Assembly: GCA_012720075.1 (NCBI GenBank)
Contig: JAAXZE010000139.1
Coordinates: forward strand, 1 to 39,820
Source of the DNA: Clostridia bacterium
GTDB taxonomy: Bacteria > Bacillota > Peptococcia > Peptococcales > BICA1-8
Length of the DNA: 39,820 bases
Direction of reading: 5' to 3'
The position numbers and the translations under genes were made by a program. The notes beneath the pieces are model-generated. The model ran no database searches. It was not told the origin of the DNA and saw only the letters and a program-made list of their open reading frames with translations. Shown here in pieces: positions 27,334-32,582 of this stretch (position 1 is its first letter; the number at the start of each line of letters is the position of its first letter).

Positions 27334-28578
27334 TTATCCCCTATATTTTCCCAAAATAACCGTTGCATTATGGCCGCCAAAGCCTAAAGAATTAGATAAA
27401 GTATAAAAAACTTCTTTTTCACGTTTAACATTAGGTACATAATCCAAATCACATTCGGGATCAGGATTTTCATAATTTATCGTCGGCGGAATAACGCCAT
27501 CCCGAATGGTCAGGGCACAAACCATCAGTTCTAAAGCCCCTGCCGCCCCTAACAGGTGGCCGGTCATGGATTTGGTTGAACTAATTGCAACTTTATAGGC
27601 TGCTTCTCCAAAAACCTGTTTTATGGCCATGGTTTCAAATTTATCATTTAATTCTGTAGAAGTGCCATGGGCATTTATATAATCAATGTTTTCCGGTTCT
27701 AATCCGGCATCATTAAGGGCAGCCCGCATAGCCCTGGCCGCACCTTCCCCATCAGGTGACGGTGCTGTAATATGGTGGGCATCAGCCGTAGAGCCATAGC
27801 CTAAGACCTCGGCATAAATCTTTGCACCTCGTTTTAAGGCATGTTCTAATGTTTCTAAAATAAGGATGGCAGCCCCTTCGCCCATTACAAAACCATCACG
27901 GTCCTTATCAAAAGGACGGCTGGCTTTGGTGGGTTCATCATTACGGGTTGATAAAGCTTTCATAGAGCAAAAGCCTGCGAAAGAAAGAGGAGTTATGGAA
28001 GCCTCGGTGCCGCCGGTAATTACTATGTCAGCATCGCCCCGCTGGATTAGTTTAAAGGCATCTCCAACGGCATTTGTACCTGAAGCACAGGCGCTGACCA
28101 CGGTAATATTAGGTCCTTTAGCTCCAAAATAAATGGAAATTTGACCGGCAGCCATATTGACAATCATCATAGGAACCATAAATGGGCTGGTCCGATTGGG
28201 TCCTTTATTGTATAACACTTTGCATTGCTCTTCCATGGTTTCTATGCCGCCAATACCCGAACCTAGAATAACGCCAACCCGGTTTAAATCAACCATTGTT
28301 AATTCCAGTTGACTGTCTTCAACAGCCATTTTAGCCGCTGCAACAGCATATTGAGTAAATAAATCCATTCGGCGTATTTCTTTTTTATCCAAAAAATCCT
28401 CCGGATTAAAATCCTTAACCTCTCCGGCTATACGGGTCGGCAATTGGCTGGCATCAAACCTGGTAATAGGACCAATACCCGATTTGCCTTCAAGTAAATT
28501 GGACCAAAATTTTTCTATTCCAGTTCCCACTGGGGAAATTATGCCTAAACCAGTAATAACTACTCTTTTCTCCGACAT
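27334..28578 (-). CDS. fabF: 3-oxoacyl-[acyl-carrier-protein] synthase II (FabF)
   Basis: Condensing enzyme that elongates acyl-ACP with malonyl-ACP. The 414-residue protein has the Cys-His-His site: Cys164 in VSACASGTN, His in [11 protein letters not shown] near residue 303, and the [13 protein letters not shown] motif with the second His and Lys. It ends [16 protein letters not shown]. It lies 82 bases after the second FabK-like gene and just before a terminator. In anaerobes lacking FabB, FabF homologues can also elongate unsaturated intermediates; that is family knowledge and not shown here. Confidence 0.97.
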
Positions 28579-28660: not shown

Positions 28661-29608
28661 CTAGAGGTTTTTTAAATCCTCCACCAGTTTGCGGATAATT
28701 TCTCCAGCCGGTAATATTTCTTTGATTTTTTCAATGTATTCTCCGGAGAAAATTAATCCTTCATCTAAGTTTCCTTGTTGAGCATTAACTAAAGCATCCA
28801 TTATACAAAAGTTTTTCTTGCATTTTTTTAAGCAAGCTTTACAATTTTTTGGGGTAAGATCAAATTGAGGATTATTAATTTTTTCGCTAAATTTGTTTCT
28901 AATTGCCCTTCCCGGTAGCCCTACAGGACTATCAATTAGAATTATGTCTTCTTTGGTCGCTTTAGTATAAACTTCTTTAAGGTTAGGAGCAGCATTTGAC
29001 TCGGAACTGGCTGCAAATCTGGTTCCCATTTGGACCCCATCGGCACCTAATTCAAAGGCCTCTTTCACATCAAGGGCATTGACAATTCCTCCCGCTGCTA
29101 TTACCGAAATAGATACAGCTTCTTTTACCTTAGGGACAATTTCCCGCATTGATTCTAAAGTCCCCAAATGCCCCCCTGCTTCTTTGCCCTCCACAACTAC
29201 CGCCGAGGCTCCTAATTCTTCCGATATTTTAGCCAGTTTAGCCGTTGACACTATAGGAACCAACGGAGTTTTAGCATCACTACACCATTTAAATATATCT
29301 CTGGAAAAACCAGCCCCTTGAATAATCAAATCGATACCTTCTTCTAGGGCAGTGTGTACTAATTGAGCAAATTGAGAAGCAGCAAACATAATATTAATAC
29401 CTATGATGCCTTTTGAATGTTCCCGGGCCCAACGAATTTCCCTTTTGAGCTCATTAATTTCCATCCCGGTAGCGGCAATTATTCCTATACCGCCGGCGTT
29501 GGCAACGGCTGCAGCTAAAGGAGCAGTGGAAATTCTTACTGCCATTCCGCCTTGGATTATTGGATATTTTGGTCTTAAATTACCTATTCGTAATTCCGGA
29601 AGTTTCAA
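28661..29608 (-). CDS. FabK/nitronate-monooxygenase-family FMN protein with a four-cysteine cluster
   Basis: FMN-binding TIM-barrel protein of the NMO/FabK family, 315 residues from TTG 29608 (GGAGGAG six bases upstream). Family marks are PIIQGGMAVRIS at 16-27, GGIGIIAATG at 39-48, EAGGHLG with His147, IAAGGI and VQMGTRF near 192. It differs from the true FabK of this operon (31644-32582) and carries four close cysteines, Cys256, 259, 263 and 268 (CKACLKKCKKNFC), a spacing that could bind an iron-sulfur cluster. Helicobacter FabX, an NMO-family enzyme that makes unsaturated fatty acids without oxygen, is known to have FMN and a [4Fe-4S] cluster, so a FabX-like role is a reasonable hypothesis. 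A terminator separates it from acpP. The reading upstream of 29608 runs through that terminator and was rejected as coding. The specific activity is unproven. Confidence 0.8.
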   Translation of the reverse strand: MKLPELRIGNLRPKYPIIQGGMAVRISTAPLAAAVANAGGIGIIAATGMEINELKREIRWAREHSKGIIGINIMFAASQFAQLVHTALEEGIDLIIQGAGFSRDIFKWCSDAKTPLVPIVSTAKLAKISEELGASAVVVEGKEAGGHLGTLESMREIVPKVKEAVSISVIAAGGIVNALDVKEAFELGADGVQMGTRFAASSESNAAPNLKEVYTKATKEDIILIDSPVGLPGRAIRNKFSEKINNPQFDLTPKNCKACLKKCKKNFCIMDALVNAQQGNLDEGLIFSGEYIEKIKEILPAGEIIRKLVEDLKNL

Positions 29609-29634: not shown

Positions 29635-29667
29635 GAAAAAAAGTCCCGTTATCAATGACGGGACTTT
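29635..29667 (-). terminator. Intra-operon terminator between acpP and the FabK-like gene
   Basis: Nine-base-pair stem (AAAGTCCCG at 29640-29648, CGGGACTTT at 29659-29667) with a 10-base loop, followed on the minus strand by a strong U run. It lies 10 bases after the acpP stop and about 26 bases before the downstream TTG start, so it should lower transcription of the FabK-like gene and fabF relative to acpP. Confidence 0.82.
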
Positions 29668-29677
29668 CTAATCTCAC

Positions 29678-29908
29678 CTATTGTACTTTTGCTTTGATAT
29701 ATTCTACAGCTGCTCCGATACTTCTAATTTTTTCAGCATCCTCATCGGGAATTTCTATATCAAATTCCTCTTCTAATGCCATTACCAATTCAACAACATC
29801 TAAGGAGTCAGCATTCAAATCCTCAAAGCTGGTATCTAAAGTCACATCATCGGGGTCAACCCCTAATTGTTCCACAACTATAGATTTTATTTTTTCAAAA
29901 AAATCCAT
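29678..29908 (-). CDS. acpP: Acyl carrier protein
   Basis: Carries acyl intermediates on a 4'-phosphopantetheine arm. From ATG 29908 the product has 76 residues, the standard size, is very acidic, and has the attachment serine Ser35 in [20 protein letters not shown] longer frame opens at 29929, but AAGGAGGTGAAGAGC directly precedes ATG 29908. It follows fabG after 38 bases and is followed by a terminator, fitting the very high expression usual for AcpP. Confidence 0.98.
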
Positions 29909-31643: not shown

Positions 31644-32582
31644 TTACAGCAATTTTTGCAATTTTTTCAGTATCTCTTCTCCTTCTGCTATTATTTCTTC
31701 AATAATTTCTTTGGAAGGTTGTACCTTATTTACCATAGCAGCAATCTGGCCGCTCATTACCGAGCCCATGACAACATCACCGTCAATAACGGCGTCCCGA
31801 AGTCTGCCGGCACCTAATTTCTCAAACTCTTCCTTTCCGGCATTTCGACTGGCCAATTCTTCAAATGCTTTGGTAAGTTTATTTTTAAGAACACGAACAT
31901 AGTGCCCGTTATAACCGGTTAATACGGTATCCCTGTCTTTGGCTTCAATAATAGCGGCTTTATAATTTGGATGTACGGTACATTCTTCAGCACAGATGAA
32001 TCTAGTACCCATTTGCACTCCAACGGCACCCAAGCTTAGAGCCGCAATTAAACCTCTCCCGTCATAGATGCCCCCGGCGGCAATTACCGGCAAATCTACG
32101 GCATCTACTATCTGGGGTACTAAAGCCATGGTTGTTATTTCTCCCACATGACCGCCGCACTCCATGCCTTCGGCTATTAAACCGTCGACACCGGTTCTGG
32201 CTAATCTTTTAGCTAAAGCCACGGAAGATACAACAGGAAATACTTTAATGCCAACTTCTTTTAATTTTGAAATATGTTTGCCGGGATTACCGGCTCCGGT
32301 GGTTATAACAGCCACCTTTTCTTCCACAACAACATCAATTAACTCTTCCACATAGGGCGACATGTAATAAATATTCACTCCGAAAGGTTTATCGGTCAAA
32401 CTCCGGGCTTTTTTGATTTCTTCCCGGACCACTTGGGGAGGAGCATTTCCTGCACCGATAATACCTAAACCTCCGGCTTCAGAAACAGCCGCCGCTAACT
32501 GGGCCGTTGCTACCCAAGCCATTCCACCTTGAATAATAGGGTATTTAATTCCTAAAAGGGTACATAATTCAGTGGTAAGCAT
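31644..32582 (-). CDS. fabK: Enoyl-[acyl-carrier-protein] reductase II (FabK)
   Basis: FMN-dependent enoyl-ACP reductase that finishes each elongation cycle, an alternative to FabI. The 312-residue protein matches the streptococcal FabK pattern: YPIIQGGMAWVATAQLAAAVSEAGGLGIIGAGNAP at 14-48, LTDKPFGVNI, ITTGAGNP, AEGMECGGHVG with His145, and VQMGTRF near residue 195. It lacks the clustered cysteines of its paralogue two genes downstream of acpP. It sits 11 bases after fabH and 12 bases before fabD, the usual place for FabK in clostridial fab operons. Confidence 0.95.
   Translation of the reverse strand: MLTTELCTLLGIKYPIIQGGMAWVATAQLAAAVSEAGGLGIIGAGNAPPQVVREEIKKARSLTDKPFGVNIYYMSPYVEELIDVVVEEKVAVITTGAGNPGKHISKLKEVGIKVFPVVSSVALAKRLARTGVDGLIAEGMECGGHVGEITTMALVPQIVDAVDLPVIAAGGIYDGRGLIAALSLGAVGVQMGTRFICAEECTVHPNYKAAIIEAKDRDTVLTGYNGHYVRVLKNKLTKAFEELASRNAGKEEFEKLGAGRLRDAVIDGDVVMGSVMSGQIAAMVNKVQPSKEIIEEIIAEGEEILKKLQKLL

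What the first reader, a model, noticed from the sequence alone, without database searches (positions are those of the whole stretch)
28661..29608. Second FabK-like flavoprotein in the fab operon carries a putative iron-sulfur cysteine cluster: FabX-like candidate
The operon encodes two FMN barrel proteins. One (31644-32582) is a normal FabK. The other has Cys256, 259, 263 and 268 in a C-x2-C-x3-C-x4-C pattern, seen directly. NMO-family FabX of Helicobacter is known to make unsaturated acyl-ACP anaerobically and to hold FMN plus a [4Fe-4S] cluster. No fabA, fabM or desaturase is visible here, and the source of unsaturated fatty acids in many Clostridia is unresolved. Placement directly before fabF, the enzyme that would elongate the product, fits. 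The function is inference.
Basis: partly seen in the sequence, partly recalled or inferred. Interest (0 to 1): 0.72.

Follow-up and report, generated by a model that had tools for sequence, protein, structure and literature searches.

The report
Short FabX-type enzyme in fab operon
A gene in a clostridial fatty-acid operon encodes a short relative of the Helicobacter enzyme FabX, with the same iron-sulfur cysteines, and is probably the long-missing enzyme that puts double bonds into membrane fats in many oxygen-free bacteria, though nobody has yet measured its activity.

Summary
In detail: window 28661-29608, minus strand, encodes a 315-aa NMO/FabK-superfamily protein with C256-x2-C259-x3-C263-x4-C268. 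All four cysteines are conserved in 80/80 named relatives, and orthologs sit between acpP and fabF in Peptococcia, Desulfosporosinus, heliobacteria and Negativicutes. The C-terminal domain alone matches only Helicobacter FabX in the PDB. Three cysteines align exactly with FabX C304/C308/C320; the fourth is one residue off C300. The FabX His, its Ser partner, the ACP-contact Lys and the tunnel residues beside the cluster are shared; FabK lacks all but the His. Barrel-only trees split FabX plus this group from FabK (100/100). FabX's insert and Arg164 are missing, so this is a distinct short form. The genome has no FabA, desaturase or evident FabM. In 300 sampled genomes of the phylum, 25 of 26 with cyclopropane synthase, which needs unsaturated lipids, carry a FabX-type protein (p=3e-7), always this short form where read. 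The general idea is prior art (UfaA 2011, FabX 2016/2021); Helicobacter FabX needs O2. Best reading: the enzyme makes cis-3-enoyl-ACP for FabF, acceptor unknown. Some Megasphaera-like genomes lack FabK and FabI, so it may also reduce enoyl-ACP there.

The parts
28661..29608 (-). short FabX-type flavoprotein gene (315 aa, TTG start)
   Evidence: ORF and translation; RBS GGAGGAG at 29621-29615; conserved start in relatives
28805..28843 (-). codons of the predicted [4Fe-4S] ligands C256, C259, C263, C268 (CKACLKKCKKNFC)
   Evidence: aligned to FabX C300/C304/C308/C320
29168..29170 (-). His147 codon, equivalent of FabX catalytic His182
   Evidence: invariant in all groups
28928..28930 (-). Ser227 codon, equivalent of FabX Ser273 (partner of the catalytic His); never Ser in FabK
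29237..29239 (-). Lys124 codon, equivalent of FabX Lys152 (ACP contact); K/R in 59 of 60 short forms, Ala in 17 of 19 FabK
27334..28578 (-). fabF, next gene downstream; would elongate the product
29678..29902 (-). acpP, gene upstream
29636..29667 (-). conserved hairpin plus T tract between acpP and this gene (possible partial terminator or mRNA processing element)
31644..32582 (-). canonical FabK (enoyl-ACP reductase) of the same operon
   Evidence: TIGR03151 499.6 bits over cut-off

Best explanation
The gene encodes a short-form FabX/UfaA-type enzyme: a TIM barrel with FMN and a C-terminal [4Fe-4S] subdomain in place of FabK's NAD(P)H-binding part. It works on medium-chain acyl- or enoyl-ACP and delivers the cis-3-enoyl-ACP that FabF, encoded next door, elongates to unsaturated fatty acids. 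Shown here: the fold, the conserved cluster cysteines at the FabX site, the His-Ser pair, the tunnel residues beside the cluster, the operon position, and the association with cyclopropane synthase. Inferred: that the cluster is present, that ACP esters are the substrate, and that cis-3 is the product. In strict anaerobes O2 cannot reoxidise the flavin. I favour a net redox-neutral course, in which trans-2-enoyl-ACP from FabZ is the substrate or the electron sink, over net acyl-ACP dehydrogenation with an external acceptor; this step is hypothesis.
For: Cluster domain alone hits only H. pylori FabX in the PDB (E 6e-10). Three Cys in register with FabX C304/C308/C320, the fourth offset by one. 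S273, K152, I321, L325 and F339 equivalents conserved in the short form and absent or rare in FabK. Barrel-only tree puts the window protein and H. pylori FabX on one side of FabK at 100/100. AF2 model pLDDT 95, TM 0.88 to FabX 7e1q. Conserved acpP-X-fabF operon. No FabA over cut-off and no desaturase in own genome or 39 relatives; one FabZ; the only crotonase found is Crt in a thl-hbd-crt set. Phylum sample: FabX-type in 25 of 26 cfa+ genomes, p=3e-7, all short form, 17 families; depleted among desaturase+ genomes, 2 of 15, p=0.003. Genera carrying the gene are rich in cis-UFAs: Pelosinus UFO1 62% unsaturated (PMC6107796), Selenomonas (PMC10901824). FabX needs its cluster for activity (PMC8626469); UfaA is the precedent for anaerobic UFA synthesis (PMC11300592).
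Against: Whole-protein similarity is slightly higher to FabK than to FabX (177 vs 137 bits), and global TM does not separate the two. FabX ACP-binding R164 and T130 and the roughly 27-residue insert are missing. The only solved FabX is O2-dependent. In FabK-less genomes the protein may serve as enoyl reductase. The cfa and desaturase tests are not corrected for phylogeny. A FabZ with isomerase ability (FabN-like) cannot be excluded by sequence.
Confidence: 0.72

Rival explanations
1. It is a second enoyl-ACP reductase: an FMN/[4Fe-4S] enzyme that draws electrons from ferredoxin instead of NAD(P)H and reduces trans-2-enoyl-ACP, with no role in unsaturation.
For: Closest solved full-length relatives are FabKs. 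Megasphaera cerevisiae and genomes G104 and G300 have lost fabK from the operon and keep this gene; the only intact FabK-model match is this protein itself and no FabI was found. FabX overexpression raised the MIC of a FabK inhibitor in F. nucleatum (PMC11091888).
Against: A FabK is kept next to it in most operons. The protein lacks the FabK C-terminal part and carries FabX-specific residues. The link to cyclopropane synthase is unexplained.
Confidence: 0.13
2. It is a true FabX-type acyl-ACP dehydrogenase/isomerase ('backtracking'), oxidising saturated acyl-ACP and passing electrons through the 4Fe-4S cluster to an unknown anaerobic acceptor (ferredoxin, quinone or another protein). This is a sub-mechanism of the best explanation.
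For: Same cofactor site, His-Ser pair and cluster-side tunnel residues as FabX; NGO1024 works anaerobically with an unknown acceptor (PMC11300592).
Against: No acceptor gene co-occurs in the operon. From general knowledge, enoyl/acyl couples are near 0 mV, so NAD+ or ferredoxin would be a poor acceptor.
Confidence: 0.3
3. Ordinary nitronate monooxygenase or generic NMO flavoprotein that happens to sit in the fab operon.
For: Pfam NMO is the best Pfam match.
Against: Strict operon conservation, the iron-sulfur cysteines and FabX-specific residues, weaker similarity to solved NMOs than to FabK or FabX.
Confidence: 0.03

Closest known systems
Helicobacter pylori FabX (HP0773; PDB 7e1q; PMC8626469)
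   Same: NMO barrel with FMN, His182/Ser273 pair, C-terminal four-Cys [4Fe-4S] subdomain replacing FabK's NAD(P)H part, ACP-contact Lys152, tunnel residues I321, L325, F339
   Different: Spacing C-x2-C-x3-C-x4-C instead of C-x3-C-x3-C-x11-C; lacks about 27 residues near FabX 50-78, T130 and R164; about 32% identical; host lineage is strictly anaerobic while FabX needs O2
UfaA (Neisseria gonorrhoeae NGO1024; Isabella and Clark 2011, via PMC11300592)
   Same: 2-nitropropane-dioxygenase-like protein needed for anaerobic unsaturated fatty acid synthesis; by its title already proposed to matter for obligate anaerobes lacking FabA
   Different: Sequence not available to compare here; whether the short clostridial form falls inside their UfaA lineage was not tested
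Fusobacterium nucleatum FabX homolog C4N14_08920 (PMC11091888)
   Same: Anaerobe, FabX-type cysteines, coexists with FabK
   Different: 50.8% identical to H. pylori FabX, i.e. closer to FabX proper; not described as part of the fab operon
FabK (TIGR03151; C. difficile 7l00, T. maritima 5gvh)
   Same: Same superfamily, fold and catalytic His; 34-37% identity
   Different: No cluster cysteines, no Ser partner, C-terminus binds NAD(P)H; separate side of the tree

Membership tests
FabX | NMO-type TIM barrel with FMN-binding residues and catalytic His182 | tested here: met
   N99, E175, G180, H182, G220, G221 and Q240 equivalents all present
FabX | four Cys for [4Fe-4S] in the C-terminal subdomain | tested here: met
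   C259/C263/C268 in register with C304/C308/C320; C256 one residue off C300; 80/80 relatives
FabX | Ser273 partner of His182 | tested here: met
   Ser in 60/60 short forms, never in FabK
FabX | ACP-binding residues K152, R164, T130 | tested here: not met
   K152 equivalent present; R164 helix segment absent and T130 is Arg
FabX | more than 50% identity to H. pylori FabX (criterion used by PMC8626469 for homologs) | tested here: not met
   about 32% over the structural alignment
FabX | acyl-ACP dehydrogenase/isomerase activity making cis-3-enoyl-ACP | not testable with these tools
   needs enzymology
FabX | assembled [4Fe-4S] cluster within electron-transfer range of FMN | not testable with these tools
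   model coordinates are not exposed; needs EPR or crystallography
UfaA (NGO1024) | membership of the UfaA lineage | not tested
   paper and sequence not held
FabK (TIGR03151) | score over the curated cut-off of 453.1 bits | tested here: not met
   217.7 bits
FabK | groups with FabK in a tree | tested here: not met
   opposite sides of a branch with 100 support
FabA / FabM / desaturase route in this genome | gene present | tested here: not met
   no FabA, no PF00487, one FabZ; one crotonase, Crt by context, cut at a contig edge

The most novel reading that the evidence does not exclude
The short form is a redox-neutral, O2-independent version of FabX that both reduces and desaturates: FMN reduced by one acyl-ACP is reoxidised by trans-2-enoyl-ACP, so the net reaction is trans-2 to cis-3 isomerisation. 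With an electron donor the same enzyme is an enoyl-ACP reductase, which lets Megasphaera-like genomes dispense with FabK. It would be the missing double-bond enzyme of many Clostridia and Negativicutes.
Probability: 0.22. Interest if true: 0.8.

Novelty: new variant of a known kind. Interest (0 to 1): 0.58.

Why it matters
How Clostridia make unsaturated fatty acids without FabA, FabM, FabN or a desaturase has been open since the classic labelling work; C. acetobutylicum FabZ was shown not to do it and a 'novel and unknown enzyme' was inferred (PMC2700279). This work names a specific, widely conserved operon gene in several Bacillota classes as the candidate, ties it statistically to cyclopropane-lipid genes, and isolates the exact biochemical puzzle: a FabX-type FMN/4Fe-4S enzyme that must work without O2. 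Whether C. acetobutylicum itself has the gene was not tested.

Tried and rejected
Global structure comparison does not discriminate FabX from FabK (both TM about 0.87-0.88). Full-length phmmer ranks FabK above FabX; only the C-terminal domain is diagnostic. FabA-model hits at E about 1e-6 in relatives are all below cut-off; the one in the window genome is FabZ. The crotonase in the genome was considered as FabM and set aside: thl-hbd-crt context and best match to short-chain-enoyl-CoA hydratase. The FabV search (PF12241) found nothing but its control also found nothing, so it is uninformative. A regex wrongly flagged one relative (L123) as lacking the motif; it reads CYNCLKVCSHRFCT, all four Cys. 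Isabella and Clark 2011 and Bi et al. 2016 are not held. Rfam has no entry for the acpP hairpin.

Full report
OBSERVATION. The ORF is real, on the minus strand, 29608 to 28661. A TTG start at 29608 has GGAGGAG six bases upstream and matches the start of relatives. They are invariant in 20 class relatives, in 54 diverse sequences, and in all 80 named loci once three FCV/FCL variants missed by a strict regex are read by eye. FabK at 31644-32582 scores 499.6 bits in TIGR03151 (cut-off 453.1); the finding scores 217.7.

IDENTITY. Full-length searches find FabK first (177 bits) and FabX later (137 bits). The last 98 residues alone match only H. pylori FabX entries (E 6e-10). In an alignment with FabX and longer relatives, C259, C263 and C268 stand in register with FabX C304, C308 and C320; C256 is one residue from C300. 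The ligand numbers, and the finding that changing any but C304 destroys the cluster, are from PMC8626469. Residues shared by FabX and the short form but not by FabK: Ser273 (partner of His182; 60/60 short, 0 in FabK), Lys152 (K/R in 59/60; Ala in 17/19 FabK), Leu325 (60/60; FabK mostly Arg) and Phe339 (60/60; FabK mostly Met); Ile321 is kept in 58/60 and in 4 of 19 FabK. Absent from the short form: the stretch around FabX 50-78, Thr130 (Arg, 60/60) and Arg164. A quick tree of full proteins and a careful tree of the barrel alone, with the cluster domain removed and H. pylori FabX added, both put FabK on one side at 100 support. No other NMO outgroup was used, so this is a split, not a proven clade.

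STRUCTURE. AlphaFold2 with 54 sequences gives pLDDT 95.0, pTM 0.92. Foldseek gives TM 0.88 to FabX 7e1q and 0.88 to FabK 7l00_B: the fold is right but global similarity does not choose between them. Coordinates are not exposed, so cluster geometry was not measured.

DISTRIBUTION AND CONTEXT. Orthologs at 63-83% identity are in 23 of the 40 genomes searched first (own family, order and class), in the same gene order fapR-plsX-fabH-fabK-fabD-fabG-acpP-X-fabF-rnc. In named genomes (Peptococcaceae, Desulfosporosinus, Heliorestis, Thermincola, Pelosinus, Sporomusa, Selenomonas, Mitsuokella, Megasphaera and others), acpP is the upstream neighbour in 64 of 80 and fabF the downstream neighbour in 58 of 80, the rest being contig edges or relocated genes. 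Longer forms (about 355-390 aa, C-x2/3-C-x3-C-x7-C) replace it in other families and in some also sit just before fabF.

OTHER ROUTES. In the window genome and 39 relatives there is no FabA over cut-off and no PF00487 desaturase, with positive controls ringing. The genome has one FabA/FabZ-family protein, FabZ by TIGR01750. Its only PF00378 hit is a contig-edge crotonase in a thl-hbd-crt set. Ten of eleven named carrier genomes have a single PF07977 protein; P. propionicus has a second weak one.

LINK TO UNSATURATED LIPIDS. In 300 genomes of the phylum, 157 have the FabX-type C-terminal domain, 153 of them strongly. Cyclopropane fatty acid synthase, whose substrate is an unsaturated phospholipid chain (established knowledge), is in 26, of which 25 are FabX-type positive (Fisher p=3e-7); every one read is the short form, and the 26 span 17 families. 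In a sample of 38 FabX-positive genomes fetched before cfa was searched, 9 of 23 short-form but 0 of 15 longer-form genomes have cfa (p=0.006). Desaturase-positive genomes are depleted (2 of 15, p=0.003). These tests ignore phylogeny. Published lipids: Pelosinus UFO1 is 62% unsaturated, mainly C15:1 and C17:1 omega-8 (PMC6107796); Selenomonas species have C16:1 and C18:1 omega-9 (PMC10901824). If the bond is made as cis-3, these positions imply formation at C11-C12, where FabX and FabA act at C10; this is my inference, and those particular strains' genomes were not searched.

MECHANISM. By analogy with FabX (PMC8626469): His147 removes the C2 proton, FMN takes the hydride, the cluster holds one electron, and the tunnel shape favours the cis-3 isomer. 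In FabX, O2 is the only known acceptor. That cannot hold in strict anaerobes; gonococcal UfaA likewise works with an unknown acceptor (PMC11300592). I think a redox-neutral course using trans-2-enoyl-ACP is likelier than net dehydrogenation, but this is hypothesis. A clue: Megasphaera cerevisiae and genomes G104 and G300 lack fabK in the operon; genome-wide the intact FabK-model match is this protein only, and FabI is not found, although FabV was not conclusively excluded. So the enzyme may also reduce enoyl-ACP there. In F. nucleatum, FabX overexpression partly offsets FabK inhibition (PMC11091888).

VERDICT. A new short variant of the known FabX/UfaA kind, very probably for unsaturated fatty acid synthesis. 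The general proposal is prior art; the specific clostridial and negativicute enzyme, its diagnostic residues, its operon and its cfa association are what this adds. I could not find a held paper that tests this short form, but most subscription journals are not in the library.

Noticed in passing
window 29636-29667 (minus strand), between acpP and the FabX-type gene; also in about 110 related loci: A strong hairpin, mostly GUCCCGU...ACGGGAC and often with a following T tract, occurs between acpP and this gene in 111 of 112 loci examined; in a 28-sequence alignment 10 of 12 pairs show changes on both sides and 95.5% of cells pair. No Rfam family matches. Perhaps a partial terminator or mRNA-processing site that raises ACP over downstream genes.
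   Followed up: partly
L106 (Megasphaera cerevisiae), L141 and L167 (genomes G104, G300): fabK is cleanly missing from the fab operon; no FabK other than the FabX-type protein (G300 has one extra copy broken by a stop) and no FabI were found, so the enoyl-ACP reductase of these genomes is unknown.
   Followed up: partly
L024-L030, L115, L116, L118, L121, L122 and others: A second, longer FabX-like group (about 355-390 aa, C-x2/3-C-x3-C-x7-C) is widespread in other Bacillota families, sometimes also just upstream of fabF, and shows no association with cyclopropane synthase in the sample.
   Followed up: partly
L123 (genome G058): A FabX-type protein with four Cys (FCT in place of FCI) in a 6.8-Mb genome that also has a desaturase; branches between the short and longer groups.
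   Followed up: no
window 29608 vs 29677: Automatic start choice would pick GTG at 29677 (338 aa), reading through the hairpin; TTG at 29608 with a strong RBS is the likely start.
   Followed up: yes
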